NCBI GenBank assembly: GCA_947038515.1
Contig: CAMQWJ010000002.1
Span: 1-64,000 of the forward strand
From: an uncultured Fusobacteriaceae bacterium
Lineage (GTDB): Bacteria > Fusobacteriota > Fusobacteriia > Fusobacteriales > Fusobacteriaceae
Length of the DNA stretch: 64,000 nucleotides
Reading direction: 5' to 3'
Shown here: positions 4,706 to 41,216 of the stretch, piece by piece
How the letters are laid out: every line of letters starts with the position of its first letter
Position numbering within the stretch: position 1 is the stretch's first letter
The notes under the pieces: generated by a model
Databases searched by the model: none
Told to the model about the DNA's origin: nothing
The model's input: only the letters and a program-made list of their open reading frames with translations
Position numbers and translations under genes: made by a program

Positions 4706-7700
4706 ATGAAGACAGAAAAAGAAAAAAGAAAAGATTATTCAATTGAAAAAATTATTTTGACAACAGATGTTGGTAATTTAACTGATTTGAAAGAAAGAAT
4801 AAACAAGGAAAACATAATAGATAAAATTTTCATAGTAAAGGGAGTGACTTATTCTCCCTTAGCATATGCAATTAAAGTTAGTAACTTTACAAGTGTTGAA
4901 TATTTTATAGAGCTTGACCCACTTTTTTATCAACGAGCAAATTTTAATTTAAAAAAAGAATGTCAAAATCTAAGAAATATCAATATCATAAAACTGTTAA
5001 TGAATAATGGAGTAGATTTCAACAAATTTCAATATCCTCTCATAAAAAATAAGTTACCTGAAAAACTTAGACTTCAATATTTAAATATTGACATGTGTGA
5101 GGCTACTCTGGGATTTTATTCTCAGGTTTTATTAGATAGAGACATGAATTATAAACTTGAATTTCTAGAACAATTGGAGATACTGGAAATTAAAAGCAAT
5201 TATAAAGACTTTTTTACTCCCTCAGAAGTGTGCATACTTGGGGCGAATTGTATAAAGGTGACTAAAAAAACATTAGAGAACTCCACTGAATCACTAGATA
5301 AGCTTTTTCGGTTATTTTTACGTATAGAAGACCATAATCCAACTAAAGTAATTAATTTTATTAAATTATTTGTAGATGAAAAAGGAATGTCTCTTGAAAG
5401 TCACGAGCCACAAAGTAAAAATGATACTTTAATTCTTCAAATTTTTAATTCTTATAATAAAAATTCTGAGATAATGTTTGAAGCAATTAAAAGAATGAAA
5501 TCTTATAATGGTTTTGAAGAGAAAATATGTTCTATTTTAAATAAAAAACAGATTTCTTCTCTTAAAGGATTTAATATTACTAATGAAATGAAATTTTTCA
5601 CATTAGAAGCATATAATGAAGTTTTTAATTGTTTAAAAACTCTAAAAATATTTAATAGAGAAGTTTTAGATCATTTAATCTATAATGATTATAGCCTTAA
5701 TGAAAAAAAAACTTTAATTAATACATTCATTGAAATGGGGGGAGATATCAATGTTCTCTATTCACCTACCCCTGTAGATTCTGATAATGTTAACCTTTTG
5801 TTTATGCTAGTATACTCTAAAATGGAAGAAGATCTTATTCCACATCTTTTACAAAAAGGAGCTAAGATTGAGTACGACGGCAATAGTGCTTTATTAGCAG
5901 CTACTCACAATTACAGTTTATCCTTAATAAAATTACTATTAAGTATGGGAGCAGACCCTAATTACCAAAATTCATCTAAAGATATTATTATTGAAGGATT
6001 ATTTTTATGGAATACTCATATATTTACATTTTCTGAACAGCAAGAGGTTATTAATTTATTTTTAGCAGCTGGCTTAGATATAGACAAGCTTTATTCTTTT
6101 AATGGCAAACAATATAGTGGATTAGAAAAAATTGCTCGAACAGAAGATACTGACCAATTGTTAGAATATTTTCTTAATAACAATATTGGTGATTTTTCAA
6201 AAGGAGAAATTCCTCTTAGAGTTATTAGGAAAAACATTACTCTAGAAAATAAATTTAAAATTATAGATTTCAATCCAAATTACAGGTTTTATGATGAAGA
6301 ATATTCTATGGAGTTATCATTACTAGATATAATCTATATGTCTGATATGTCTGAAAGTGCAATTCTTATTGATTATATGCTAGAAAAGTATCCTAAAGTT
6401 AAGTTAAGTTATATAAAACAGAACTTTTATTTTCACGAAGAAGGTCTTAACATTTCAACTTATGAAAAGTTAATGAGAAATAATTCAGATTTAATAAAGA
6501 AAAAATATAGATTTGATACCCCTGATGATCTTACTTCCTATAACCCTATTACTCTATTTCTTAGGAGTATGGACTTTCTTAATCGATATAATGAGGGTAA
6601 AATCGATGAAATTATATCTATTTTGAATCTTTATGTAGAGCTTGGTGACGATGCTAATACTCGAATTAAGAGTTCAATATTACAAATAATTTCATTTGAA
6701 ATGACTAATCTTAATAAAATTGATTTAAGAATCTTTAACTGGCTATATCAAAATGGTTTTGATATAGAACGAAAAGATGGAACTCATAATGAAACACCTC
6801 TGCTTGAGCTTCATAGATATAATATAGAAGATTATAATCCTGTAGCTGAAGATGTTTATGTAAGTATTTTAGACTTTTTCTGGGAGAAAAAACCTTTTGA
6901 TCTTAATATTAGAAGTGGAGTTGAAGATGATTTACTACTTGCTTATTCAAAAGCATGTTTACCAAAAGTAGTAGAATGGATATTGAAGAAAGGTGGTAAT
7001 ATCAATACAATAGGCGGTTTTGATAATTCACCTGCACTTCATAAAGCGATTTCAAACCACTCAATGATTTCACCAAGAAGAAGAGCTCAAACTGTTGAAG
7101 TGTTACTTAAATATGGAGCAGATATCGAACAAGTTTGTAATGCAGATCACTATACCCCATTAATGTCAGCAGTATTCTACGGTGCTAAAGAGTGTGTAAA
7201 AGTTTTATTACAAGCAGGGGCCAATGTTAATGCAATTTCTCCTACTGGGGCAATAGCATCTCAGTTAGCAGTTCTTAGCCCACGTTCTTATGATGCTCCT
7301 GGACCTAACAATTATGAAAGTATTCAGTCTAATATCCTAAAAACATTAGTGGAATATGGTTCTGAATTAAATTTCCCTGGTCAGATGGAGGGGACCATTT
7401 GGACACCTCTTCAAGGTACTATATTAAATAATAAAAAAGAAATTTTTGAGACATTATTACAATTAGGGGCCGATATAAACTTTAAAGATCTTAAGAACGG
7501 AGCTACCCCTTTAATGATAGCAGTTTCTTATGGTGAAAATTATTTTATAACTAGACTTCTAGCTGTTAATTCTAATGTAGAATTAACAAATAAATTTGGT
7601 CAAAATGTTTTATTTTATTGTTTGCATAGAGAAAATCGAGAAGAAGCAATATCTCTTTATGACTCTTTTAAAAAGAATGGTCTTAAAGAAGGAAAAGCTG

Positions 7701-8101
7701 CTGGAAATATGAATTTACTTCTTCAGGCTTCTTCTCATTTATACAATCCTTTCATAGAAATATTGAGTAAAGATATCGATATAAATAGCTCTGATGATCA
7801 TGGATATACTCCTTTAATATGGGCTATTTCATCAAATGTGGACTGTGATATTCACGAAAGAATGGCTTGCATAAATAAAATAGTATTTTTAGGAGGAAGT
7901 CTTGAATCTGTAGATAATTATGGAAGAACCCCTTTAATATGGGCAGCTGATTTGAAATACCCAGAAATAATAGATAATTTAATTAGATTAGGAGCTTCAG
8001 TGGAATTATCTATTTCAATAGCATTACAATTTAATCTGAATGAAGAAATTTTGACTACTTTAAAAAAATATAAACCTTCAAATAATATACTGTTTTCTTA
8101 A
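4706..8101 (+). CDS. Giant ankyrin-repeat protein
   Basis: This 1131-residue protein has no signal peptide or membrane segment and is probably cytoplasmic. Degenerate ankyrin repeats run through it. They are clearest at residues about 390-425 (ALLAATHNYSLSLIKLLLSM), 810-855 (TPLMSAVFYGAKECVKVLLQ), 930-985 (TPLMIAVSYGENYFITRLL) and 1030-1100 (TPLIWAISS and TPLIWAADLKYPEIIDNLI). The N-terminal 380 residues have weaker repeats. Such proteins bind other proteins; no enzyme domain is visible. The only in-frame ATG near the promoter is preceded by a four-codon leader ORF instead of a ribosome site. It stands alone between its promoter and a terminator at 8245. Partner and role are unknown. Confidence 0.85.
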   Translation: MKTEKEKRKDYSIEKIILTTDVGNLTDLKERINKENIIDKIFIVKGVTYSPLAYAIKVSNFTSVEYFIELDPLFYQRANFNLKKECQNLRNINIIKLLMNNGVDFNKFQYPLIKNKLPEKLRLQYLNIDMCEATLGFYSQVLLDRDMNYKLEFLEQLEILEIKSNYKDFFTPSEVCILGANCIKVTKKTLENSTESLDKLFRLFLRIEDHNPTKVINFIKLFVDEKGMSLESHEPQSKNDTLILQIFNSYNKNSEIMFEAIKRMKSYNGFEEKICSILNKKQISSLKGFNITNEMKFFTLEAYNEVFNCLKTLKIFNREVLDHLIYNDYSLNEKKTLINTFIEMGGDINVLYSPTPVDSDNVNLLFMLVYSKMEEDLIPHLLQKGAKIEYDGNSALLAATHNYSLSLIKLLLSMGADPNYQNSSKDIIIEGLFLWNTHIFTFSEQQEVINLFLAAGLDIDKLYSFNGKQYSGLEKIARTEDTDQLLEYFLNNNIGDFSKGEIPLRVIRKNITLENKFKIIDFNPNYRFYDEEYSMELSLLDIIYMSDMSESAILIDYMLEKYPKVKLSYIKQNFYFHEEGLNISTYEKLMRNNSDLIKKKYRFDTPDDLTSYNPITLFLRSMDFLNRYNEGKIDEIISILNLYVELGDDANTRIKSSILQIISFEMTNLNKIDLRIFNWLYQNGFDIERKDGTHNETPLLELHRYNIEDYNPVAEDVYVSILDFFWEKKPFDLNIRSGVEDDLLLAYSKACLPKVVEWILKKGGNINTIGGFDNSPALHKAISNHSMISPRRRAQTVEVLLKYGADIEQVCNADHYTPLMSAVFYGAKECVKVLLQAGANVNAISPTGAIASQLAVLSPRSYDAPGPNNYESIQSNILKTLVEYGSELNFPGQMEGTIWTPLQGTILNNKKEIFETLLQLGADINFKDLKNGATPLMIAVSYGENYFITRLLAVNSNVELTNKFGQNVLFYCLHRENREEAISLYDSFKKNGLKEGKAAGNMNLLLQASSHLYNPFIEILSKDIDINSSDDHGYTPLIWAISSNVDCDIHERMACINKIVFLGGSLESVDNYGRTPLIWAADLKYPEIIDNLIRLGASVELSISIALQFNLNEEILTTLKKYKPSNNILFS

Positions 8102-8244
8102 TTTTAGAATTTTTTAAACTGTTTTACTTGAAAAACACTAGTAATTCAGCTGTTAATATTTATGTATATTTTTCTAAAAAAATCATATAGAGAATATTTG
8201 GTACTCTAATATTTTTTTAATTCTAAAATAAAATTATAATATTA

Positions 8245-8282
8245 AAAAATCACTGAATTGGAGTTCTAATTCAGTGATTTTT
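8245..8282. terminator. Bidirectional terminator between ankyrin gene and DUF4026-like gene
   Basis: AAAAATCACTGAATT and AATTCAGTGATTTTT form a perfect 15-bp stem with an 8-base loop. A-run and T-run flanks serve both converging genes. Confidence 0.85.
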
Positions 8283-8318
8283 AATTTTAGACTTGTTATT
8301 TCCCTTTTCATTTAAATA

Positions 8319-9524
8319 TTAGTTTATAGTATTTTTTTCCATTTCTTTTAGTAAAAATATAGTATCAGGAGTTATTTTTTCTTCGTTATAATATATTATC
8401 CAGTCTGTCATTTTCTCTCTTGATATTTCTAATATATCTCCTTCTTTTATATTTTTTATAAAATAAGGAGCATTTATTAAGATTCCCTTATATATTTTAT
8501 TATTTTCCTCTATAATATCAAACCACAAATGCTCTTTTTCACCATCTTTTTCAGGATTATCAGTATCTAATCCAAATTTAATTAAAACTTTTCTATTTTT
8601 ATTTTCTAAAAATGGAAATAATATATACTCCCTCTCTTTTGCTAAAATACTCATTCTATTAGTTTCTTCATCTGAAATATAAAATATTGGATTATTTTCT
8701 AAGTCATTTTTTAAAAGAGTTATATCAGATATAATTCCATTACTGTAATCTTCTTCTGAAGCGTAAACTTTAATTTCTAAATTGTTTTCATGGTGTTCCT
8801 CTTTTTCAATAGAATTTTCATCTTTTATTAATGTAAGGGGATAGTTTTGAATTCCCCAAAAAACCTCTTTTTCTTTTAATTTTTCTCCTAAATTTCCATT
8901 TATAATATTTTTTATAAAAGTATCTAATAATGGATAGTATAATTGTCCGTCTTCGCAAGGAAAACCTTTTATTTCAACCTCATTAAATCCAAACCTCTCT
9001 AATCCATGAGTATGGTACCAGCCTGTTTCATCTTCCATAGCTACTCCATGAATGTTTACTAAATAGTCTGGACTAGGAGTTATTATAGACCTACTTGCTA
9101 TTTTTACCCATTCTTTATTTAAAATTGAAAAAGAAGACATATCTAATACTGCGTTCAAATCAGGGATTATTAAGTCTATTAGCTTTAAATGTAAATGAAA
9201 AGAACTTAATAAATCTTCATTATATTCAATTTCTATTTCAATTCCTTCCTCTATTTCTTTTAAAATATTTAAATCCTTTTCATTTAAATATTGATTTCTT
9301 CCTATAAAATTATGCAAGCATCCATTTATATCATTTAAATAATATATAAATACTTCAAATTCTTTTCCTTCCCACTGGATATTATAGATTCCTTCTTTAA
9401 TTTTATTTACTTTTAATTCTAATGAATCTTTTAAGTAAGTTTCAATTATATCTAAATTTTCTGGAAGATTATTGCTAACTCCCACTAAAGATGATTTTTT
9501 TTTATTTATTTTACTCTCCTCCAT
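8319..9524 (-). CDS. DUF4026/DUF2314-like hypothetical protein
   Basis: This is a soluble acidic 401-residue protein without signal peptide. The C-terminal part (about residues 325-395: KEHLWFDI, GILINAPYFIKNIKEGDILEI, DWIIYY) looks like DUF2314. The N-terminal two thirds resemble DUF4026 proteins that often carry DUF2314 (GWYHTHGLERFG, YPLLDTFIKNIINGN). Neither domain has an established function. The ATG at 9524 has no clear separate ribosome site and overlaps the preceding small ORF by 19 bases, suggesting coupled translation. The domain names are from memory of family motifs and carry moderate certainty. Confidence 0.7.
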   Translation of the reverse strand: MEESKINKKKSSLVGVSNNLPENLDIIETYLKDSLELKVNKIKEGIYNIQWEGKEFEVFIYYLNDINGCLHNFIGRNQYLNEKDLNILKEIEEGIEIEIEYNEDLLSSFHLHLKLIDLIIPDLNAVLDMSSFSILNKEWVKIASRSIITPSPDYLVNIHGVAMEDETGWYHTHGLERFGFNEVEIKGFPCEDGQLYYPLLDTFIKNIINGNLGEKLKEKEVFWGIQNYPLTLIKDENSIEKEEHHENNLEIKVYASEEDYSNGIISDITLLKNDLENNPIFYISDEETNRMSILAKEREYILFPFLENKNRKVLIKFGLDTDNPEKDGEKEHLWFDIIEENNKIYKGILINAPYFIKNIKEGDILEISREKMTDWIIYYNEEKITPDTIFLLKEMEKNTIN

Positions 9525-9730
9525 TTAATTAATAAATTTTTTTTATTTTTTTGTACATCTAAGGGTATTAAAATTTTTTCTCTATTAATAATTTTTTTAT
9601 ATTCATATTGATATACAGGATCTTTTACAATTATTTCATCATACAATTGAATATAATCTTTTTTGACAATAAAATTTTGCTCTTTTATCTCTTTAAATTG
9701 TGGTTCTCTTTTTAAATCATCCTCTAACAT
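9506..9730 (-). CDS. Small hypothetical protein or N-terminally truncated remnant
   Basis: The 74-codon frame is charged and soluble. The same frame stays open and protein-like for about ten codons upstream of the ATG (KLKITEEVLK), back to a stop at 9770-9772, with no good ribosome site at 9730. It may therefore be the tail of a lost longer gene or use a non-ATG start further up. It overlaps the next gene by 19 bases. I do not recognise it. Confidence 0.4.
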   Translation of the reverse strand: MLEDDLKREPQFKEIKEQNFIVKKDYIQLYDEIIVKDPVYQYEYKKIINREKILIPLDVQKNKKNLLIKWRRVK

Positions 9731-9802
9731 TTTTAATACTTCTTCTGTTATTTTTAATTTCGAGTTGTTTTAAGAAAGCATATTTTCTCTTGTTTATAAT
9801 AT

Positions 9803-10231
9803 TTAACCTAAACTTTGAAGTAGCGAATGCAAAAATATTGCTATATATATAGATATTATTAATAATACCCAAAAAAAACCTCCTATTATAGAACTTTTTA
9901 ACAAATGATTTTTCTTTAAATTGAATACTGAAAATACTATGGCAAAAAAAATAACAATATTTGTAGGTATAAACGATATCAGAAAACTTATTTCTTGAAA
10001 AGAAGATATTCCTGAAATAAAATAAGAGTTTTTATCACTCAAGAAAAATAATATATCTGAATATAGTGCAAATATATTTACAATAAACATATTTATTAAA
10101 ATTAATAAGAATAGCCCAAAAAGTAATTGTTTTATAATATTATTTTTCTTCAACATTATACAAAAACTAATTATAGTGGCTATACTTGTCAAAAGCAATA
10201 TAAAGAACACTGGAATAAGAATCATTCCCAT
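9803..10231 (-). CDS. Small integral membrane protein, unknown function
   Basis: This 142-residue protein is very hydrophobic, with about four membrane-spanning segments (residues roughly 5-28, 35-58, 75-103 and 112-137) and short charged loops (LKKNN, NLKKNH). The start has a GGAGGGGT-type ribosome site. No family motif is recognised. It lies 36 bases downstream of the DsbA-type gene on the same strand, so it could be cotranscribed with it. Confidence 0.65.
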   Translation of the reverse strand: MGMILIPVFFILLLTSIATIISFCIMLKKNNIIKQLLFGLFLLILINMFIVNIFALYSDILFFLSDKNSYFISGISSFQEISFLISFIPTNIVIFFAIVFSVFNLKKNHLLKSSIIGGFFWVLLIISIYIAIFLHSLLQSLG

Positions 10232-10267
10232 AAAACCCCTCCCTTTTTTAACTTATTATTTTATAAA

Positions 10268-10867
10268 TCAAGAATTTAATATGACTTCTTCCCATGTTAT
10301 TATATCTCTTGGAAATTCTTTTATCTGGTTTTCATTTAAATAAAATGTAGGAACAACTTCAAAATCAAACTCTGAAACTTTTTCATTTAAAGATATGTGT
10401 GCTTCTTTATACTTTCCAGAAATCAAAACTTCTTTCATCTCTTCTTTTGGAATATTAAGCTTTTCTGATATTTCAACTAATGTTCCAATACTTCCAATAT
10501 CTTTATTATTTAGCCAGTATGCATCTAATATTGCTCTTATATACTGGATTCCTTTTCCATATTTTTCCGCTAAATAGAGCCCTTCAAAAGCTAAAGAAGT
10601 TCTAGGTCTAGGCGACAATGAGTTAAAGTTAATTTTAATATTCTCTTTTTTTGCCCACCCCTCTATATTCTTTTTAAAATATTCTAGTTTTTCTTCCCCA
10701 ATAACTGTTTGAGGGTCAGGAGAAGGACTTAGTTCATAAGGTAAAAATTTGAAAGTAGGTTCAATTTTTAATTTAGTTAATACTTCTTCTAAAATTTTCT
10801 CACTTACAAAGCAATATGGACAAACAAAATCCAAAATAATTGAAATTTCTAATTTTTTATTTTTCAT
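10268..10867 (-). CDS. DsbA-family FrnE-like thiol oxidoreductase
   Basis: This is a thioredoxin-fold protein of about 199 residues with the active site CPYC in DFVCPYCFVSEKI near the N-terminus. It also has the family's helical insertion and the cis-Pro region VPTFYLNE near residues 180-187. It has no signal peptide, as in the cytoplasmic FrnE/DSBA-like group that oxidises, reduces or isomerises disulfides. I chose the ATG at 10867; a GTG at 10876 adds three residues. Neither has a good ribosome site: the nearest strong one (GGAGGTGAG, about 10911-10917) lies 45 bases upstream inside a duplicated 40-bp element. That suggests the gene's 5' flank was replaced by recombination. Confidence 0.82.
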   Translation of the reverse strand: MKNKKLEISIILDFVCPYCFVSEKILEEVLTKLKIEPTFKFLPYELSPSPDPQTVIGEEKLEYFKKNIEGWAKKENIKINFNSLSPRPRTSLAFEGLYLAEKYGKGIQYIRAILDAYWLNNKDIGSIGTLVEISEKLNIPKEEMKEVLISGKYKEAHISLNEKVSEFDFEVVPTFYLNENQIKEFPRDIITWEEVILNS

Positions 10868-10886
10868 CTTTAACACTGTTATTATG

Positions 10887-10926
10887 TAGTTTTAATAACA
10901 GTTTCTCACCTCCATTATTAGTATAT
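10887..10926. repeat. Duplicated 40-bp flank, copy 1
   Basis: This segment, starting TAGTTTTAATAACAG and ending ATTATTAGTATAT, is identical to 13952-13991. Homology continues into the adjacent 3' gene ends. It marks the downstream edge of a duplicated block holding the C-terminal domain shared by two lipoproteins. Confidence 0.85.
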
Positions 10927-12021
10927 TACTTTATTAAATTTATCACCTTTCATAAGTATTTTTACTTCATTAATAATATCAACCTTTAATTTTTTAATCC
11001 CACCCTCACTATAGTCAATAGTATGGTTATCTGACTTATCTAATACTATGTAATATGTATCTTCCTCAGTATCTTTTGGCACTAAAAATTCAACCTGATT
11101 TTCTTTGCCTAATAATTCTACTTCTTTTTCTGTCACTAAAGTAGCTTTTTTTCCTGCTATTCTCTCATCATAAGAATATAATGATATTTTTATTTTACTA
11201 TTTTCTGTATTATCTCTTATAATATTTACTTTTAAAGTTTCATGTTCCCGAAAAATAATGTTTCCATCTTTAATATTTACTTTATATTTTACTTTACCAT
11301 CTTTGTAATATTCTGCCAGAAGTCCTTCTGACTTTCCATTTTTATAATTCCCTTCTAATTCTAATTGACCATTTTCATAATACTCTCTCTGAACTCCTTC
11401 TTTTTTTCCATTTTTATAATTTACTTCTAATTTTAATTGACCATTTTCATAATAAAATTTCTGAAGTCCTTCTTTTTCTCCATTTTTATAATTTACTTCT
11501 AATTCTAATTGAGTATCTTTATAATAAACTCTTTGAACTCCCTCTTTCTTTCCATCTTTAAAATTTGATTCATAGTCTGGTTGCCCATTTTCATAATAGG
11601 CTTGAATAACTCCACCTAGTTGCCCTGCTTTATAAGTTGTTAGTAACTTCAATTGGCCATTTTTATAATATCTCCTCTCAACTCCTTCTTTTCCTCCGTT
11701 TTTGTAATATACTTCGTACTCTAATCGACCATTTTCATGATAATATCTCTTAAATCCTTTTTTTCCTCCTTTTTTAACATTTTCTTCAAATAACAATTTA
11801 TCGTTTTCATAATTTTTTCTATGAAATCCTTCCATCTTTCCTGATTTGTAATTTATTTCAAATATTCCTCCATCATTTTCATGACTTTCTATATATTTCC
11901 CAGTGAAAGGAGTTGTACTATTCACTTCAAAAGCTACTCCATTTCGTTCCACTATAGTATCTACCGTCTTTCCACAACCTATTAATAACAGTAAAAATGA
12001 TAATATTAGTATTTTTTTCAT
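10918..12021 (-). CDS. YwqK/MORN-type repeat lipoprotein with extra C-terminal domain (chimera)
   Basis: This 367-residue protein has a lipobox signal peptide (LLLIGCGK, Cys16) and is probably anchored in a membrane facing the periplasm or surface. About nine 24-residue repeats of the form NYKNGKKEGVQREYYENGQL follow, at residues 40-255. They are the MORN_2-like type seen in proteins databases call YwqK-family antitoxin, a name with little functional support. Residues about 261-367 are not repeats and are nearly identical to the mature part of the separate lipoprotein at 13983-14387, including EFLVPKDTEEDTYYIVLDKS. The gene therefore looks like a fusion of two neighbouring genes. A GGGGG ribosome site precedes ATG. 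Confidence 0.85.
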   Translation of the reverse strand: MKKILILSFLLLLIGCGKTVDTIVERNGVAFEVNSTTPFTGKYIESHENDGGIFEINYKSGKMEGFHRKNYENDKLLFEENVKKGGKKGFKRYYHENGRLEYEVYYKNGGKEGVERRYYKNGQLKLLTTYKAGQLGGVIQAYYENGQPDYESNFKDGKKEGVQRVYYKDTQLELEVNYKNGEKEGLQKFYYENGQLKLEVNYKNGKKEGVQREYYENGQLELEGNYKNGKSEGLLAEYYKDGKVKYKVNIKDGNIIFREHETLKVNIIRDNTENSKIKISLYSYDERIAGKKATLVTEKEVELLGKENQVEFLVPKDTEEDTYYIVLDKSDNHTIDYSEGGIKKLKVDIINEVKILMKGDKFNKVIY

Positions 12022-12128
12022 TTATAACCCCCTTATTATTTTTTATATCTCATTATAGTACTAATAATAAAATTACAATATTTTTAGAAAAAATTCAATA
12101 TTATAATTTATCTCTTTTAATATAAGCT

Positions 12129-12902
12129 TTACAAAACTTTTTTACCATTTTTATAATTTATTTTAGATTTTAATTTACCATCTTTGTAATATTCTTTATG
12201 AACTCCTTCCTCTTCTCCAGATTTAAAATTCCCTTCTGATTCCAACTGACCATTTGGATAATATGCTCTCTGAAGTCCTTCTCGACTCCCATCTATAAAA
12301 TTTGTTTCTAATTCCAAATTTCCACTTCTATCATACCGTCTACGAAGCCCTTTTCGCCTCCCGTCTATGAAATTTTCTTCTATTTCTATCTGACCATTTT
12401 TATAATATTTCCTCTGAACTCCTTCTTGTTCACCTTCTTTATAATTTTCTTCTATTTCCAACTGACCATTTTCATAATACCATCTATAAAGTCCATCTCG
12501 TTCCCCTTCTTTGATATTTGTTTCTAATTTAAACTGACCATTTTCATAATAATTCCTCTGAATTCCTTCCTCTTTTCCATCTTTAAAATTACCTTCGATT
12601 CTCAATTTATCATTTTCATAATAATTCCTCTGAATTCCTTCCTCTTTTCCACCTTTAAAATTACCTTCATAGAACAGTATTCCATTTTCATAATAAGTCT
12701 TCTGAACTCCTTCTTTTTTACCATTTTTGTAATTCCGTTCATATTGCAAATTACCATTTTCATAGTTTCTTTTATACTTTCCAGTATAAGGAATTTTGCT
12801 ATTTACTTCAAATGTTAGTCCATTGTTCTCATCTAAAATATCAACTACCTTTCCACAACCTATTAATAACAGTAAAAATGATAATATTAGTATTTTTTTC
12901 AT
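12129..12902 (-). CDS. YwqK/MORN-type repeat lipoprotein
   Basis: This 257-residue protein has the same first 17 residues as its two neighbours (MKKILILSFLLLLIGCGK, lipobox Cys16). About nine 24-residue repeats follow (EGNFKDGKEEGIQRNYYENG and variants) with a short tail (YKDGKLKSKINYKNGKKVL). It lacks the C-terminal domain of the gene downstream. The repeats form beta-hairpin ladders in related families; no catalytic motif is seen. The upstream intergenic stretch resembles that of the 10918-12021 gene, so the cluster arose by tandem duplication. Ribosome site AAGGGG lies before ATG. Confidence 0.85.
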   Translation of the reverse strand: MKKILILSFLLLLIGCGKVVDILDENNGLTFEVNSKIPYTGKYKRNYENGNLQYERNYKNGKKEGVQKTYYENGILFYEGNFKGGKEEGIQRNYYENDKLRIEGNFKDGKEEGIQRNYYENGQFKLETNIKEGERDGLYRWYYENGQLEIEENYKEGEQEGVQRKYYKNGQIEIEENFIDGRRKGLRRRYDRSGNLELETNFIDGSREGLQRAYYPNGQLESEGNFKSGEEEGVHKEYYKDGKLKSKINYKNGKKVL

Positions 12903-32748: not shown

Positions 32749-34134
32749 TTATTGGTTGATTTTTATCCAAAAGATAAATTTTTCTTCTTTTATATCAATC
32801 CCATATCCAATATCATGAAGTTCAAGTATCTTTTTTACTATTGCTAATCCTAACCCATGACCAGAAACTTCTTTTTCTAATTGCTCTTCTCCACGATAAA
32901 ATGAATCCCAAATTTTATCTATCTTTACATCTATCGACTTAGAAATTTCATTAGAAAAATATATTTTTTTGTCCAATTGATATATTTCTAAAATTCCTGT
33001 TTCTTTTGCATATTTCATGCTATTTTCTATTATATTATCCACTACAATTTTCATCAAAGATAAATTGCCATAAAAATTTTCTTTCTCTAGATTTATTTCA
33101 ATTGTCAAATCTTTTTTTAATTCTAAATTCTCATATTTTTCCAATGAATCAGATATTAATGATTTTATTTCAATATTTTCTTTTGTCAAAACATAACTTG
33201 AAGAATCAATCTTTGAGATTGTTAGGAGATTTTGTACTAATTCTTCCATATTGATACTTTCTTTAAAAATTGTTTCATAATATTTCTTTTCTTTTTCTTT
33301 AGAAATTGAATTTTCTAAAAGAAGAGTCTGAGAATATGAATTTATAACTGAAATAGGAGTTTTTAATTCATGAGAGGCGTTTGAAACAAACGATTTTAGA
33401 TTTTCTATTCCCTCATAAAGTTTATTTGACATTTTTTCTAGTTCTATACTTAAATCACCAATCTCATCCCCTCTTTCTATTTTAATATTTTTAGGAAATT
33501 CCAGTTTTGAAATCGATTTTGCTGTTATCGAAAGCCTTTCCATATCCCTTGTTAACTTTTTAGAAAAACTATGTGCAATAATAACTGTAATTAATATCCC
33601 CACAATCGAAGATAACAAATTAAAAATTAATAGTTCTTCTTTATGTCCTTGCATCACAGAAATTGAAGTCCAAGCTGTTATAAACATTTCATTTTCAGTT
33701 TTTAGAGTATAACTTAACATTTTTATATTTGATTTTCCTATATTCGTCAAAATAAATTCTTGATTTTCAAATTTTATTCTTTCATGTGTAATTCTTCTAT
33801 TTTTTCCATGACCTCTTTTTCCATATTTTTGTGAATAATATCTTTTGTTTGAAATTAATTTAAATTCTATCCCATCAAATTCTTTTACTTTATCTTTATA
33901 ATCTTCTAGTATCTCTCTTTTTTCATTTTTTTCTATCTGTAATTTACTAATTCTATTTACATCTTCAACCACTTTCATTATCAAGGTTTTCTTTCGTGCA
34001 ATATAAAATTTATCAAATAAAAACATATTAAAGATGTTTCCAATAACAATAATTATTGTTATTATAAAAAGAGAATAAATAAAAAGTTTTTTAAAGTAAC
34101 TAATCCTCATATTTTTATATCTATTTTTCATCAA
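32749..34134 (-). CDS. Sensor histidine kinase
   Basis: This 461-residue inner-membrane kinase has a transmembrane segment at about 18-40, an extracytoplasmic sensor loop of about 125 residues (basic, SQKYGKRGHGKNRR near 101-114), a second segment at about 170-190 and HAMP at 190-240. The phospho-acceptor is His255 in SNASHELKTP. The ATP-binding domain follows, with Asn371 (NIIENSMKYA) and GHGLGLA at 425-431. It overlaps the response-regulator gene by 14 bases, so the two are coupled. The signal is unknown; the ZIP metal transporter gene just upstream on the same strand makes metal sensing a guess only. Confidence 0.93.
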   Translation of the reverse strand: MMKNRYKNMRISYFKKLFIYSLFIITIIIVIGNIFNMFLFDKFYIARKKTLIMKVVEDVNRISKLQIEKNEKREILEDYKDKVKEFDGIEFKLISNKRYYSQKYGKRGHGKNRRITHERIKFENQEFILTNIGKSNIKMLSYTLKTENEMFITAWTSISVMQGHKEELLIFNLLSSIVGILITVIIAHSFSKKLTRDMERLSITAKSISKLEFPKNIKIERGDEIGDLSIELEKMSNKLYEGIENLKSFVSNASHELKTPISVINSYSQTLLLENSISKEKEKKYYETIFKESINMEELVQNLLTISKIDSSSYVLTKENIEIKSLISDSLEKYENLELKKDLTIEINLEKENFYGNLSLMKIVVDNIIENSMKYAKETGILEIYQLDKKIYFSNEISKSIDVKIDKIWDSFYRGEEQLEKEVSGHGLGLAIVKKILELHDIGYGIDIKEEKFIFWIKINQ

Positions 34135-34780
34135 AACTGTACCCTACCCCCCTAATTGTCTTTATAAGTTCACTATAATCTCCTAATTTTTTTCGTACCC
34201 TCTTGATAAGTGTATCTACACTCCTGTCTTCCATTTCAATGTCATAACCCCATATTTCATTTAAAAGCATTTCTCTCGTAATTACTTTATTTTTATTTTT
34301 TATAAAATACTCTAATAACTCTGTTTCTTTTTTTGAAAACTCTATTTTTTTTTCATTTATTGTAAACAAGTGACGTGAAAAATCAAAATTTATTCCACGC
34401 CAGCTATAAATAAACTTAGAATCTAATTTTAAATGTTTCATAATTCTAATTAAAAGTATTTTTAAGTTAAATGGTTTACTTATATAGTCATCTGCTCCTA
34501 ATTCTAGTCCTTTTATTTCCTCGGAATCAGTGTCTCTAGCAGTCATAATTATAATTGGAACATTGGAATCTACTCTTATTTCTTTACAAATATCCCAACC
34601 ACTTTTTTTAGGTAAATTAATATCTAGTAATATTAAATCAGGATTTTTTTCATAAAAAATATCAATAGCTTCCTCTCCATTTTTTGCTTGATACACTATC
34701 AAATTATTTTTTATAAGTGTATCACTTAATATTTCCATCAAAGATGTTTCATCTTCAACAATTAGAACTGTTTTTCTCAC
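34121..34780 (-). CDS. OmpR-family response regulator
   Basis: This 219-residue regulator has a receiver domain with acidic pocket Glu9-Asp10 (VEDE), phospho-acceptor Asp53 (LLDINLP), Thr of MTARD and Lys of SKPF. It is followed by a winged-helix DNA-binding domain (EMLLNEIWGYDIEMEDRSVD, TIRGVGYSFD). Phosphorylated by the overlapping kinase, it should bind direct repeats near its targets. The ATG start follows an AAGGTATAA-type site. The regulon is not evident from this window. Confidence 0.95.
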   Translation of the reverse strand: MRKTVLIVEDETSLMEILSDTLIKNNLIVYQAKNGEEAIDIFYEKNPDLILLDINLPKKSGWDICKEIRVDSNVPIIIMTARDTDSEEIKGLELGADDYISKPFNLKILLIRIMKHLKLDSKFIYSWRGINFDFSRHLFTINEKKIEFSKKETELLEYFIKNKNKVITREMLLNEIWGYDIEMEDRSVDTLIKRVRKKLGDYSELIKTIRGVGYSFDEK

Positions 34781-35876: not shown

Positions 35877-38390
35877 ATGCAATATTTTTTATATGACCGA
35901 AAAAAAACTGCTTTGATTTTTAAAGACAAAGAGTATAGCTATTCTGATTTACTGAACAATGCACGATATTATAATTCTAAACTTAATATTTCCATTGGAG
36001 ATAGAGTTGTTTTATTTACTGAAAATAGACCTGAATTTATTTATTGCTTTTTTGGTATTATTGAAAAAGGCGGAATCTCTGTTAATATAGATTCAGGATA
36101 CAATGCAGAAGAACTTTCTCATATTTTTATTGACTCAACCCCAAAATATGTATTTACCTCAAATAAAAATTATAATATTGCTCTTGAAGCAAAAAAAATA
36201 GCTAATTCAAATGTTAACATTATTGTTTTTGATGAAAACGAAGACAATGAGAACAATCTAAATGTTTTATCAGACTCTAAGCCTATTTTGGCACCTCCAA
36301 TGGAACAGACTGTAGTTATTTTATATACCTCTGGGACAACTGGGACACCAAAAGGTGTTATGCTTACTTATGGTAATATTTTAACTAATCTTTTAGCCGT
36401 TCAAGAACTAGAATTATTAAGCGATAAAGATAGAATGTTATCATTTTTACCATTTCATCATATTTTACCTTTAGCCATTAATATCCTTATGCCATTATAT
36501 TTAGGATCACTTGTTGTAATTTCAAACGATTTATCTTCTGAAGCAATAAAAGCTTCTATGAATAAATATAAAATCACAGCTATGATTGGAGTTCCTAGAG
36601 TTTGGGAAATGTTCCATAAAGGAATAATGGGAATTATTAATTCTAAATTTCTTACTCGAACTCTTTTTAAAATTTGTGCTAAAATTCAATCCCCTGCCCT
36701 TAGTAAGACTATTTTCTCTAAAATACATAATGCTTTTGGTGGACACATGCGACTTTTAGCCTCTGGTGGAGCAAAACTAGAAAAAGAAATATTAAATGAT
36801 TTCACAACTATGGGATTTTTTATGCTAGAAGGATATGGAATGACAGAAACTTCTCCTCTTATATCATTTAATAGACCTGGTCATATTAGAGGTGGAAGTG
36901 TTGGTTTTCCACTTCCTGGTATCGAAATTAAAATTTCAGATGAAAATGAAGTTCTTGTTAAGGGACCTAATATTATGAAAGGATATTTTAATCAACCACA
37001 GGCAACATCAGAAGTGATTAATAAAGATGGTTGGTTTCATACTGGTGATTTAGGTCATTTTCATGATAACCACCTTATTTTAACTGGACGAAAAAAAGAA
37101 ATGATTGTTCTTTCCAATGGTAAAAATATAAATCCTGGTGATATTGAATCTGAGTTAATGAAGAAAACTTCTTTAATTAAAGAAATAGGAGTTGTTGAGC
37201 ACAACAAACATCTTCTTGCACTTATCTATCCAGATTTTGAACTAGCAAAAAAGGAAGGGATAGTTAATATAAAAGAGGAAATAAAATGGCAAATCATTGA
37301 TCACTATAATATTACTGCCCCTAATTATAGAAAAATATTGGAAACTAGAATTGTTTCTGTTGAATTACCAAAAACTAGAATTGGTAAATTACAAAGATTT
37401 AAGCTCCAAGAATTGATTCTTTCAGAAAAAAAACCTGAAGTTAAAGAAGAATTAAAAAATGAATTAAATGATAAATATATAAATACAAAAGAATATGTAA
37501 TTCTTGAAAAATATTTTAATAATCTTCATGAAGTAGATCGTATTACTCCTGACTCTCATTTAGAAATTGATCTTGGAATGGATTCTCTCGACAATGTTGA
37601 ACTTTTGTCTTATATCTCTACGACTTTTCAAATCTCTATTACAGAAGAAGATTTCTCAAATGCACAAACTGTTAAAGAACTAATAGCCCTTATAATAAAT
37701 AAAGGGGGTGATTTTAAAGAGGGAGAAGTTAATTGGAAAAATATTTTTGACGAAAAAATCTCTTATACATTACCAAAGTTCAATAAAATAATATGTTTTC
37801 CTTTTGATTTTCTTTTAAAATTATTTTTTAAAACCTATATAAAATTAAAGAAAGTTGGAATAGAAAATTTATCTGATTCTCCTACTATTTTTGTTGGAAA
37901 TCATCAGAGTATGCTTGATGCTTTTGCTTTTACTCAGATTCTCTCTTCTAATTTGAGAAAAAAAACATATTTTATGGCTAGTAATATTCACTTTTCTAGT
38001 GATTTTAAAATTTGGGTGGCTAAAAATTCAAATGTCATTCTTTTAGATATGAATAAAAATATAAAAGATAGTCTTAAAATTTCTGCTAAAGTCCTAAACG
38101 AAGGAAATAACCTTGTAATTTTTCCAGAAGGTGCCCGAGCTCGTGACGGTAAGCTTCAAGATTTTAAAAAAAGTTTTGCTATTTTATCAAAAGAATTAAA
38201 TGTTAATATTACTCCATTTGCTATAAAAAATGCATATAATCTAATGCCATATGGAAGTTCTTTGCCTAAACATGGTTCTATGGAAATTGAAGTTTTATCT
38301 CCTATCTCACCATCTAACCACACTGTTGATGAATTAGTTAGTGAAACAAGAAATTCTATAAAAAAAGTTGTATTCACAGAAGAAAAATGA
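35877..38390 (+). CDS. Fused acyl-adenylating enzyme, acyl-carrier domain and acyltransferase
   Basis: This 837-residue protein has three domains in order. An AMP-forming acyl-CoA/acyl-ACP synthetase spans about 1-510 (P-loop YTSGTTGTPKG at 150-160, GYGMTET near 320, TGDLG, TGRKKEMIVLSNGKNI). A carrier domain spans about 535-610, with DSL Ser570 as the phosphopantetheine site. A PlsC-type 1-acylglycerol-3-phosphate acyltransferase spans about 640-835 (NHQSMLD at 675-681, FPEGARARDG at 749-758). It could activate a free fatty acid, hold it on its own carrier and place it on a lysophospholipid. E. coli Aas has the acyltransferase first and no carrier domain. Ribosome site GGAGGAAAA. First of a three-gene operon. 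Confidence 0.88.
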   Translation: MQYFLYDRKKTALIFKDKEYSYSDLLNNARYYNSKLNISIGDRVVLFTENRPEFIYCFFGIIEKGGISVNIDSGYNAEELSHIFIDSTPKYVFTSNKNYNIALEAKKIANSNVNIIVFDENEDNENNLNVLSDSKPILAPPMEQTVVILYTSGTTGTPKGVMLTYGNILTNLLAVQELELLSDKDRMLSFLPFHHILPLAINILMPLYLGSLVVISNDLSSEAIKASMNKYKITAMIGVPRVWEMFHKGIMGIINSKFLTRTLFKICAKIQSPALSKTIFSKIHNAFGGHMRLLASGGAKLEKEILNDFTTMGFFMLEGYGMTETSPLISFNRPGHIRGGSVGFPLPGIEIKISDENEVLVKGPNIMKGYFNQPQATSEVINKDGWFHTGDLGHFHDNHLILTGRKKEMIVLSNGKNINPGDIESELMKKTSLIKEIGVVEHNKHLLALIYPDFELAKKEGIVNIKEEIKWQIIDHYNITAPNYRKILETRIVSVELPKTRIGKLQRFKLQELILSEKKPEVKEELKNELNDKYINTKEYVILEKYFNNLHEVDRITPDSHLEIDLGMDSLDNVELLSYISTTFQISITEEDFSNAQTVKELIALIINKGGDFKEGEVNWKNIFDEKISYTLPKFNKIICFPFDFLLKLFFKTYIKLKKVGIENLSDSPTIFVGNHQSMLDAFAFTQILSSNLRKKTYFMASNIHFSSDFKIWVAKNSNVILLDMNKNIKDSLKISAKVLNEGNNLVIFPEGARARDGKLQDFKKSFAILSKELNVNITPFAIKNAYNLMPYGSSLPKHGSMEIEVLSPISPSNHTVDELVSETRNSIKKVVFTEEK

Positions 38391-38430
38391 TACTATGTAA
38401 AAAACACTTGTTATTTTAAAGGGAGGAACT

Positions 38431-40887
38431 TTGAATTTCATTAAAGATTATAATAAAACTGCAATTATTTATGGAGAAACTTCTATTAACTATAAAGAGC
38501 TTATTGGATATAGTAAAAGTTATAGTTCTCTTATAAATATTAATAGAGAAGACAGGGTCATTATTTACATGGAAAATCGTCCTGAACATATTTATTCTTT
38601 TTTTAGTATTTGGGATAAAAAGGGAACTGCTATCTGCTTAGATGCTACTTTTACATCTTCAGAATTAGATTACTACTTTTTAGATTCCAACCCTAAATAC
38701 ATTTTTACATCTGAAAAAAATAAACTTAATACTCTTGAAGCTTTAAATAGAATTGGAAGTAATACTCCTGTTATCGTTGTTGATAACATCGAAAACACTT
38801 ATTCAGGAAATGACTATACTATTCAACCTCCTGAAAAAGAAGATACTTGTCTTATTTTATATACCTCTGGTACTACTGGAAACCCTAAAGGAGTCATGCT
38901 TACCTTTGATAATCTACTTATTAATATTGAAGGTCTTGACTCTCAAAAGGTTTATCTTCCTGAAGATAGGTTTCTTGGATTATTACCACTGCATCATATT
39001 TTTTCAATTATAGGAACTGCGATTATTCCTCTTTCTAAAGGGGCTACTCTTATATTTTTAACTGAACTTTCTCCTGAAAATATGGTTAAAGCTCTTAAGG
39101 AACATAAAATAACTGTAATGCTTGGAGTTCCAAGAATTTGGGAAGCAATGTTAAGAAAAATACTTCTTAAAATAAATTCATCAATAATTAGTAAGTCTGT
39201 TTTCAAAATTGCTAAATTAATTAATAATAAAGCATTTAGTAAAATAGTTTTTAAAAAGGTACATGATGAATTTGGCGGACATCTGAGATTCTTTGTTTCT
39301 GGTGGTTCTAAGTTAAATGGACAAATTGCTAAATCTTTTCTAACGCTAGGAATTGAAATTTTAGAGGGATACGGTCTTACTGAAACTGCCCCTATGATTG
39401 CATTTACTCATCCGAATAATGTTATACCTGGTTGTGCAGGCAAACTTTTACCAGGTATAGAAACAGTTATTGCTGAAGATGGAGAAATTCTTGTAAGAGG
39501 TAGAAATGTTATGAAAGGTTATTACAACAAACCTGAAGCAACTGCTGAAGCCATTGATGATAAAGGATGGTTTCATACTGGTGATTTAGGAACTTTAAAA
39601 GGTGAAAACTTATATATCACAGGACGAAAAAAAGAGATGATTGTTCTTTCCAATGGTAAAAATATAAATCCAGTTGAAATTGAAGATTGGATAATCTTTA
39701 ATTCTAACTTAGTAAATGAGGTTGCAGTAGTTGAATATGATTCCAAACTAACTGCTATCATTTATCCTAATTTTCAAAAAGTTCATGAAGAAGGTATAAA
39801 TAATATAATCGAAACATTAAAATGGGGAGTCATTGATACCTATAATCATACTGTTCCATTATACAAAAAGATTTTAGTCATTAAAATTTTACAAGTAGAA
39901 CTTCCAAAAACTAAACTTGGGAAAATAAGACGTTTTATGATACCTGAACTTCTTAACGAAGTAGAACAAGAGTCTGTAGTTCACAGTGAACCTACGTATC
40001 AAGAATATATAGAATTAAAAGAATTTTTATCACTTCTTAAAGAAAAAAAGATTTCACCAAATGCACATTTAGAACTTGATCTTAGTCTAGATTCACTAGA
40101 TATCACTGAACTATTTGCATATATTGAAAATAACTATGGAGTTATTGTCGAACAAACTTTGATAACTCAATATCCAACAGTTGAAAAACTTTCTGAATAT
40201 TTAAAAAGTAACAACAACACTGATATTATTAAAAATTCTGATAAAAATTGGAGTTCTGAACTTAATTCTGTATCAAACATCAAAATTAAAAATTCATGTT
40301 TACCTTTTTTAATTGGATTTCTTTGTAAGCCACTATTCTGGTTTTATATTAAACAAAATCTAAGTGGAAAAGAGACTCTTGTTGATACCCCTTCAATTTA
40401 TGTTGGAAATCATCAAAGTTTTCTAGATGTATTTTTAATTAATAATGTCATACCTAAGTTTTTATTACACAAAGGATTCTATATAGCAAAAATTAAATAC
40501 TTTAAAAATCCTCTTATGAAATTTGCAGCTACTCACTCTAATATTATTCTTTTAGATATTAATAGTAATGTCAGAGAAGCTCTTAAAGAGGCTGCAAGAG
40601 TCCTTAAGTCTGGTGGAAGCATTATTCTCTTTCCAGAAGGTGTTCGTTCAAGAGATGGAAAAATACGAGAATTTAAAAAATCTTTTGCTATTTTATCAAA
40701 AGAACTCAATATCCCTATTACTCCATTTGGTATAAAAGGAGCATATTCTTTACTTTCTCCTACAGATAAATTTCTTAAATCTGGAACTGTTGATTTTAAA
40801 TTTTTCCCTAGAATTTATCCTGAAACACTTTCTGTTGAAGAAATTGTTGAAAAAACACACTCTACCATTAAAAGTTGGGTAGAATAA
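38431..40887 (+). CDS. Second fused acyl-adenylating enzyme, carrier domain and acyltransferase
   Basis: This 818-residue paralog of the preceding gene starts at TTG (38431) behind GGGAGGAACT. It has the same architecture: synthetase (YTSGTTGNPKG at 144-154), carrier DSL Ser555, acyltransferase NHQSFLD at 660-666 and FPEGVRSRDG at 734-743. All catalytic motifs are intact, so it is not a decaying copy. Divergence from the first copy is clear in the N-terminal 140 and carrier regions, so the two probably differ in acyl-chain or acceptor choice. The gap after the first gene is 40 bases. Membrane-surface location is inferred from the substrates. Confidence 0.88.
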   Translation: MNFIKDYNKTAIIYGETSINYKELIGYSKSYSSLININREDRVIIYMENRPEHIYSFFSIWDKKGTAICLDATFTSSELDYYFLDSNPKYIFTSEKNKLNTLEALNRIGSNTPVIVVDNIENTYSGNDYTIQPPEKEDTCLILYTSGTTGNPKGVMLTFDNLLINIEGLDSQKVYLPEDRFLGLLPLHHIFSIIGTAIIPLSKGATLIFLTELSPENMVKALKEHKITVMLGVPRIWEAMLRKILLKINSSIISKSVFKIAKLINNKAFSKIVFKKVHDEFGGHLRFFVSGGSKLNGQIAKSFLTLGIEILEGYGLTETAPMIAFTHPNNVIPGCAGKLLPGIETVIAEDGEILVRGRNVMKGYYNKPEATAEAIDDKGWFHTGDLGTLKGENLYITGRKKEMIVLSNGKNINPVEIEDWIIFNSNLVNEVAVVEYDSKLTAIIYPNFQKVHEEGINNIIETLKWGVIDTYNHTVPLYKKILVIKILQVELPKTKLGKIRRFMIPELLNEVEQESVVHSEPTYQEYIELKEFLSLLKEKKISPNAHLELDLSLDSLDITELFAYIENNYGVIVEQTLITQYPTVEKLSEYLKSNNNTDIIKNSDKNWSSELNSVSNIKIKNSCLPFLIGFLCKPLFWFYIKQNLSGKETLVDTPSIYVGNHQSFLDVFLINNVIPKFLLHKGFYIAKIKYFKNPLMKFAATHSNIILLDINSNVREALKEAARVLKSGGSIILFPEGVRSRDGKIREFKKSFAILSKELNIPITPFGIKGAYSLLSPTDKFLKSGTVDFKFFPRIYPETLSVEEIVEKTHSTIKSWVE

Positions 40888-40889
40888 TT

Positions 40890-41216
40890 TTGAATAATTG
40901 TTGGTATATATATATGATACGTTGTGAAAACAATTCTCTTTATACTGGCATTACAACAGATTTTAATCGAAGATTTTTAGAACATTCTTCTGGAACTGGT
41001 GCAAAATATACTAAAATATTTAAACCAAAATATTTTGAAATAATTTTCTTTACTGAAAATAGGTCTTTTGCTTCTCAAATAGAGTTTACTATAAAAAAAT
41101 TTAGTTCAAAAAAAAAGGAAGAGTTAATTTCAAATCCTAGCCTTTTTTTACAGAAGTTAAATTTAAAATTTAATTTTGAAATTTTTTTTCTTACTTCAAA
41201 ATTAACCTCTAATTAA
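40890..41216 (+). CDS. YhbQ-type GIY-YIG domain protein
   Basis: This small nuclease-fold protein (about 109 residues) has WYIYMIRC (the GIY part), LYTGITTDFNRRFLEH (YIG part with the catalytic-type Arg) and a Glu in SQIEFTIKKFS. This is the compact UPF0213/YhbQ type of unclear function, possibly in DNA repair. I prefer TTG at 40890 (LNNCWYIYMIRC); an ATG at 40875 would overlap the upstream gene by 13 bases. Neither has a strong ribosome site, so translation may depend on the upstream gene. It is last in the acyl-ligase operon, before a terminator. Confidence 0.8.
   Translation: MNNCWYIYMIRCENNSLYTGITTDFNRRFLEHSSGTGAKYTKIFKPKYFEIIFFTENRSFASQIEFTIKKFSSKKKEELISNPSLFLQKLNLKFNFEIFFLTSKLTSN

What the first reader, a model, noticed from the sequence alone, without database searches (positions are those of the whole stretch)
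35877..40887. Tandem paralogs fusing acyl-activating, carrier and acyltransferase domains
Both genes encode synthetase - ACP-like carrier (DSL serine) - PlsC-type acyltransferase in one chain, with all catalytic motifs intact. E. coli Aas has only two domains in the other order and uses separate ACP. These could be self-contained lines that activate a fatty acid, hold it covalently and esterify a lysolipid, in two versions with different substrates.
Basis: partly seen in the sequence, partly recalled or inferred. Interest (0 to 1): 0.65.

Follow-up and report, generated by a model that had tools for sequence, protein, structure and literature searches.

The report
Self-loading acyltransferase that replaced PlsC
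Two neighbouring genes each encode one protein that can activate a fatty acid, hold it on a built-in carrier and attach it to a lipid; in this bacterium and several relatives they are the only visible replacement for PlsC, the usual enzyme that finishes membrane phospholipids, which has been deleted from the genome.

Summary
Both ORFs are intact and carry AMP-binding, carrier (PP-binding) and PlsC-type acyltransferase domains, with the catalytic motifs conserved in 58 relatives. They are 42% identical and descend from one old duplication in the Fusobacteriaceae. The fusion is not peculiar to Fusobacteriota: complete A-ACP-AT proteins occur in Bacteroidota, Nitrospirota, Aquificota, Omnitrophota, Rubrobacter and others.

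The main new result is what is missing. The recA-recX-plsC order is intact in relatives, but here plsC is cleanly deleted: recX and tsaD overlap by 4 bp. The two fusions are then the only PF01553 acyltransferases in the genome, although PlsY, which makes PlsC's substrate, is kept. Standalone plsC was lost at least four times, always where the fusion is present. A Sneathia-sized complete genome and Streptobacillus moniliformis lack FabF and PlsX; there the fusions are the only AMP-binding and only PF01553 enzymes.

Best reading: a self-loading sn-2 (lyso)phosphatidate acyltransferase, fed by free fatty acid, that can replace PlsC. Against this, the acyltransferase lacks PlsC's motif-II arginine and groups apart from it, so an Aas-like lysophospholipid role remains open. 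No biochemistry was available; different substrates for the two copies are only weakly supported.

The parts
35877..38390 (+). fusion A, 837 aa: AMP-binding - carrier (ACP) - PlsC-type acyltransferase
   Evidence: ORF; Pfam; clade A of the tree
35901..36989 (+). A: AMP-binding core domain
   Evidence: PF00501 residues 9-371, E 2.5e-72
37098..37397 (+). A: AMP-binding C-terminal subdomain with the A10 lysine K504 (LPKTRIGKLQRF)
   Evidence: PF23562 residues 408-507, E 9.3e-9; motif conserved
37530..37694 (+). A: carrier (PP-binding) domain; Ser570 codon at 37584-37586
   Evidence: PF00550 E 4.2e-10; also found in the genome search
37848..38228 (+). A: PlsC-type acyltransferase domain (NHQSMLD ... 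FPEGAR)
   Evidence: PF01553 E 5.7e-21; fold match to 5kym
38431..40887 (+). fusion B, 818 aa, same domain order, TTG start, 40 nt after A
   Evidence: ORF; Pfam; clade B
38452..39525 (+). B: AMP-binding core domain
   Evidence: PF00501 E 7.8e-70
39634..39933 (+). B: AMP-binding C-terminal subdomain
   Evidence: PF23562 residues 402-501, E 2.3e-8
40039..40203 (+). B: carrier domain; Ser555 codon at 40093-40095
   Evidence: PF00550 E 2e-8
40360..40737 (+). B: PlsC-type acyltransferase domain (NHQSFLD ... FPEGVR)
   Evidence: PF01553 E 9.4e-24

Best explanation
Each gene encodes a self-loading glycerolipid acyltransferase. The AMP-binding domain turns a free fatty acid and ATP into acyl-adenylate and transfers it to the 4'-phosphopantetheine of the built-in carrier (Ser570 / Ser555). 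The PlsC-fold domain (His-Asp in NHQSxxD) then esterifies the chain to the free hydroxyl of a lyso-glycerophospholipid, most likely 1-acyl-glycerol-3-phosphate from PlsY, giving phosphatidic acid. In this genome the pair has taken over the job of the deleted plsC; in FabF-less relatives the same protein also brings in exogenous fatty acid. Shown by sequence: domains, order, intact motifs, predicted fold, gene census, plsC deletion. Inferred: carrier modification, fatty-acid substrate, lysophosphatidate as acceptor, taking over PlsC's essential role.
For: Domains and conserved motifs; PlsC fold. The own genome (completeness 100%) has only these two PF01553 proteins but keeps PlsY, PlsX, FabF, free ACP and FakA; its only other AMP-binding protein reads as a single NRPS module. 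Synteny: recA-recX-plsC, followed by tsaD, in relatives of the same genus, but recA-recX-tsaD here, mid-contig, RecX and TsaD overlapping 4 bp, so this is a real deletion. Of 61 Fusobacteriales genomes, 12 lack a standalone PlsC (about 250 aa) and all 12 have an intact fusion and PlsY; the 5 with no intact fusion all keep standalone PlsC; none lacks both. A RecA tree needs 5 changes of plsC state, at least 4 forced by well-supported branches. G058 (1,330,224 bp, one contig) has no FabF, no PlsX, one PF01553 and one AMP-binding protein, both in one fusion; G052 (= Streptobacillus moniliformis by its 1,662,578-bp chromosome, PMC3035246) has the two fusions only. S. moniliformis grows only with serum (PMC8692008) and contains 18:2 (PMC3035246), as expected of a fatty-acid scavenger. 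In the same genus as the window, the two standalone PlsC copies have FPEG changed to FPQG.
Against: All fusion acyltransferases lack the motif-II arginine that LPAATs conserve (mutation to Ala strongly inhibits mammalian LPAAT-alpha; PMC6688108); fusobacterial and most Bacteroidota-type fusions have D-x-N or similar there instead. In a tree the fusion domains fall with Aas, not with PlsC. The lysine thought to help hold the LPA phosphate is absent from clade A and from the FabF-less species. FASII-bearing genomes such as this one make acyl-ACP on a separate ACP, which the model does not need. No lipid, enzyme or mutant data were found. PF01553 absence does not exclude an unknown LPA acyltransferase family.
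Confidence: 0.58

Rival explanations
1. Aas-like recycling: the fusions re-acylate lysophospholipids (from the host, lipoprotein maturation or phospholipases) with scavenged fatty acid; LPA is acylated by an enzyme not recognised here.
For: The acyltransferase lacks the motif-II Arg, as Aas does, and clusters with Aas rather than PlsC. AMP-binding plus acyltransferase is the Aas set of activities.
Against: No PF01553 protein other than the fusions remains in 11 of the 12 plsC-less genomes although all keep PlsY. The motif-III Arg, which Aas lacks (EGRI) and which is placed to bind the LPA phosphate in T. maritima PlsC, is invariant. No LplT gene was recognised beside the fusions, although neighbours were not all annotated. 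True LplT-Aas coexists with them in G018 and, by its 1123-aa PF01553/PF00501 ORF, in G006.
Confidence: 0.25
2. Split use: the acyltransferase domain takes acyl chains from free acyl-ACP like PlsC, while the AMP-binding domain loads free ACP for other enzymes; the built-in carrier is only a docking or relay domain.
For: A free ACP is kept in every genome tested, even the FabF-less ones; this genome has FASII and PlsX.
Against: The carrier serine and its DSL context are invariant in 58 of 58; domain order is kept in distant phyla.
Confidence: 0.1
3. The pair makes a special lipid (ether lipid, glycolipid, lipid A variant) and not bulk phospholipid.
For: Two paralogues kept apart over a whole family; the fusion is absent or broken in a few Fusobacteriales (G003, G013, G030, G037, G047).
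Against: Dispensed with only where PlsC remains; the small G058 genome keeps one fusion as its only acyltransferase of this family.
Confidence: 0.07

Closest known systems
E. coli Aas (2-acylglycerophosphoethanolamine acyltransferase / acyl-ACP synthetase; NCBIfam NF005959) and LplT-Aas (NF005291, NF006386)
   Same: AMP-binding acyl activation and PlsC-fold acyl transfer in one chain; acyltransferase without motif-II Arg
   Different: Opposite domain order, no built-in carrier, motif III EGRI without the Arg; the fusions score 208 and 189 bits against NF006386 (cut-off 1221); a true LplT-Aas (1118 aa, above the NF005291 cut-off) exists beside the fusions in G018
[quoted passage not shown]
   Same: Fold (5kym, TM 0.72), motif I NHxSxxD, motif III EGxR; apparently same place in the pathway in plsC-less genomes
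   Different: Fused to its own activating and carrier domains; motif II D-x-N in place of D-R; separate clade in the tree
Chlamydia AasC + LpaT split system (PMC6167442)
   Same: Fatty acid activation onto ACP followed by lysophospholipid acylation
   Different: Two separate proteins using free ACP; Chlamydia keeps PlsC and PlsE
NRPS A-PCP loading di-domains (e.g. McyG A-PCP, 4r0m)
   Same: Adenylation domain followed by carrier in cis
   Different: Ends in a lipid acyltransferase, not in condensation or ketosynthase domains

Membership tests
Aas / LplT-Aas | Whole-protein score above NCBIfam equivalog cut-off | tested here: not met
   NF006386: 208.5 and 189.3 bits vs 1221
Aas / LplT-Aas | Order acyltransferase then AMP-binding, no carrier domain | tested here: not met
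   Order is AMP-binding, carrier, acyltransferase
Aas / LplT-Aas | Acyltransferase without motif-II Arg | tested here: met
   D-M-N / D-I-N here, D-P-T in E. coli Aas
Aas / LplT-Aas | Lysophospholipid acylation with ATP-dependent fatty-acid activation | not testable with these tools
   needs an enzyme assay
PlsC | PF01553 with motif I NHxSxxD and motif III FPEGxR | tested here: met
PlsC | Motif-II Arg (D-R) | tested here: not met
   absent from all fusions, present in standalone fusobacterial and E. coli PlsC
PlsC | Groups with PlsC in a tree | tested here: not met
   PlsC is one clade at 99/94 without the fusions
PlsC | PlsC fold | tested here: met
   predicted model matches 5kym, E 1.6e-11
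PlsC | LPA acyltransferase activity | not testable with these tools
   inferred from gene census only
A-ACP-AT fusion family (unnamed) | PF00501 - PF00550 - PF01553 in this order in one ORF of about 820-910 aa | tested here: met
   window, Rubrobacter and 8 loci of other bacterial phyla
A-ACP-AT fusion family (unnamed) | Phosphopantetheine on the carrier serine | not testable with these tools
   serine invariant in 58 of 58

The most novel reading that the evidence does not exclude
In fatty-acid-auxotrophic Sneathia/Streptobacillus, and in plsC-less Fusobacteriaceae including this genome, one polypeptide family supplies the sn-2 acyl chains of the membrane from free fatty acid, by-passing free acyl-ACP and PlsC; it has displaced plsC at least four times and is essential.
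Probability: 0.45. Interest if true: 0.75.

Novelty: new variant of a known kind. Interest (0 to 1): 0.6.

Why it matters
PlsC is generally regarded as the standard, essential second acyltransferase of bacterial phospholipid synthesis. It would also turn a set of genes annotated only as 'AMP-binding protein' into a testable lipid-synthesis family spread over many phyla.

Tried and rejected
Membership in Aas: rejected by domain order and NCBIfam cut-offs. Fusobacterial invention, or capture of the local PlsC: rejected, since the fusion occurs in many phyla and its acyltransferase is not nested in PlsC. Assembly gap as the cause of missing plsC: rejected by mid-contig synteny. A third fatty-acid activator in this genome: the extra AMP-binding ORF on C10 reads as a single-module NRPS. 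Gene neighbourhood for a functional partner (LplT, phospholipase): none recognised; only a response-regulator-like gene next to A in many relatives. Literature: five library searches for this fusion or for Fusobacterium lipid genes gave no paper that describes it, and a search for F. nucleatum essential-gene papers gave nothing that I followed up; most subscription papers are not held.

Full report
Observation. Both ORFs are present at the stated coordinates, intact and complete. A spans 35877-38390 (837 aa, ATG) and B spans 38431-40887 (818 aa, TTG), each behind a GGAGG-type ribosome site, 40 nt apart, with no terminator-like site between them. Pfam gives AMP-binding, AMP-binding_C_3, PP-binding and Acyltransferase in that order in both, all above curated cut-offs. 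A and B are 42% identical end to end. Chance is not an issue.

Anatomy. In 58 full-length homologues from Fusobacteriales the P-loop YTSGTTG, the TGD and GR motifs, the A10 lysine (PKTxxGK), the carrier serine (DSL), acyltransferase NHxSxxD and PEGxR are invariant or nearly so. The acyltransferase model (pTM 0.88) matches T. maritima PlsC best (5kym, TM 0.72); the full model matches adenylating enzymes and an A-PCP didomain. One difference from PlsC is consistent: the motif-II arginine (D-R in E. coli and in standalone fusobacterial PlsC) is missing. Most fusobacterial fusions have D-[MIVL]-N there; E. coli Aas and the Rubrobacter fusion have D-P. The motif-III arginine, placed to bind the LPA phosphate in T. 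maritima PlsC, is kept in the fusions but not in Aas.

Spread and history. The fusion is intact in most of 61 Fusobacteriales genomes. The tree shows one duplication in the window's family giving clades A and B (99 each, SH-aLRT), often adjacent, and a separate tandem duplication in genus g19 (Streptobacillus). Clade-specific changes are few: A299/S293 in the GGAKL segment, two positions soon after GYGxTE, and a PlsC-like lysine after motif I in 15/20 B and 0/21 A. Rubrobacter radiotolerans carries one on a plasmid. The fusion acyltransferases lie apart from PlsC and beside Aas, though long branches make the exact relation to Aas unsure.

plsC is missing. Searching the whole own genome (completeness 100%) with PF01553 gives only A and B. 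Relatives carry recA-recX-plsC, followed by tsaD in the same genus. In the own genome the order is recA-recX-tsaD in the middle of a 333-kb contig, RecX and TsaD overlapping by 4 bp, so plsC has been deleted. Two other members of the genus keep it, but with FPQG in place of FPEG. The locus also lacks plsC in G006, G009, G020, G021, G028, G052, G057 and G058. Over 61 genomes, 12 lack a standalone PlsC (about 250 aa), all 12 with an intact fusion and PlsY; the five without an intact fusion keep PlsC. G006 has in addition a 1123-aa LplT-Aas-type ORF and a truncated third copy, so there the fusions are not the only PF01553 proteins. A RecA tree needs five changes of state, at least four of them forced by well-supported branches; because the synteny is shared by two families, these read as losses.

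Genomes without fatty acid synthase. G044, G052, G060, G057 and G058 have no FabF and no PlsX but keep PlsY and a free ACP. G052 is S. moniliformis by exact chromosome length (PMC3035246); G058 fits Sneathia amnii Sn35 by size (1,330,224 bp against about 1.34 Mb in PMC3535699 and PMC5093955), which is likely but not proved. In G058 the single fusion is the only AMP-binding and the only PF01553 protein; in S. moniliformis the two fusions are. FakA, for acyl-phosphate and the sn-1 chain, is found in four of the five. Serum dependence (PMC8692008) and 18:2 in the fatty-acid profile (PMC3035246) agree with use of host fatty acids. Here the fusion is the only visible way to make an acyl thioester from exogenous fatty acid and to acylate the second position.

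Mechanism. Shown: domains, motifs, predicted fold, deletion of plsC, census. Inferred from established enzymology of the AMP-binding, ACP and PlsC families: acyl-adenylate formation, loading of the carrier in cis, transfer by His-Asp catalysis. Inferred from genome logic: LPA as acceptor. The missing motif-II arginine and the Aas-like placement are the main reasons for doubt, so an Aas-like acceptor (lysoPE, lysoPG) is the chief rival.

Verdict. The architecture is not new in kind (a new variant beside Aas and PlsC) and is widespread, but no paper on it was found in the open library. The likely takeover of the PlsC step is the surprising, testable part.

Noticed in passing
L126 (G000:C1:170000-184000) 5348-6924: plsC deleted from the recA-recX-plsC-tsaD order; RecX and TsaD overlap by 4 bp.
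   Followed up: yes
L103 7811-8542 and L102 2277-3020: Standalone PlsC of two other species of the window's genus has motif III FPQG instead of FPEG (Glu to Gln), possibly decaying.
   Followed up: partly
L071 about 6027-8070 (G047): Fusion gene broken by many in-frame stops in one Leptotrichia-like genome, which keeps a standalone PlsC.
   Followed up: partly
L055 5491-6759 (G006): Truncated third copy (end of the A domain, carrier, acyltransferase) behind an N-terminal piece that looks transposase-like.
   Followed up: partly
L132 3635-6991 (G018), also G006: LplT-Aas protein (1118 aa in G018, above the NCBIfam NF005291 cut-off) coexists with the A and B fusions.
   Followed up: yes
L131 4349-4966 (G018): 205-aa PlsC-like protein with a motif-II Arg, beside genes that look like phospholipid synthesis genes; not seen in the plsC-less relatives.
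   Followed up: partly
genomes G039, G047, G044, G052, G057, G058, G060: No PlsX although PlsY is present, even in Leptotrichia-like genomes with FabF; G057 lacks a FakA match too, so the source of acyl-phosphate there is unexplained.
   Followed up: no
G000:C8:38536-39531: Second, divergent PlsX-family protein (395 aa), perhaps a glycine-reductase GrdC/GrdD-type protein.
   Followed up: no
L217 4323-7301 (G000:C10): ORF of 992 aa that reads as a single-module NRPS (condensation-like start, adenylation, GGDSL carrier).
   Followed up: no
window 32749-34780 and L035, L040, L042, L045, L046, L048, L049, L051, L053, L058, L061: A response-regulator-like gene lies just upstream of fusion A in many relatives; in the window a two-component pair lies nearby behind a ZIP transporter gene, on the other strand.
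   Followed up: partly
window 40875-41216: GIY-YIG ORF overlaps the last 13 nt of fusion B on the same strand and may be co-transcribed.
   Followed up: no
L074 (NC_014633.1) 7417-12584 and L075 (NZ_CP077186.1) 7414-9888: Ilyobacter polytropus carries the A-B pair on its 962-kb plasmid; a Fusobacterium animalis plasmid carries one fusion.
   Followed up: no
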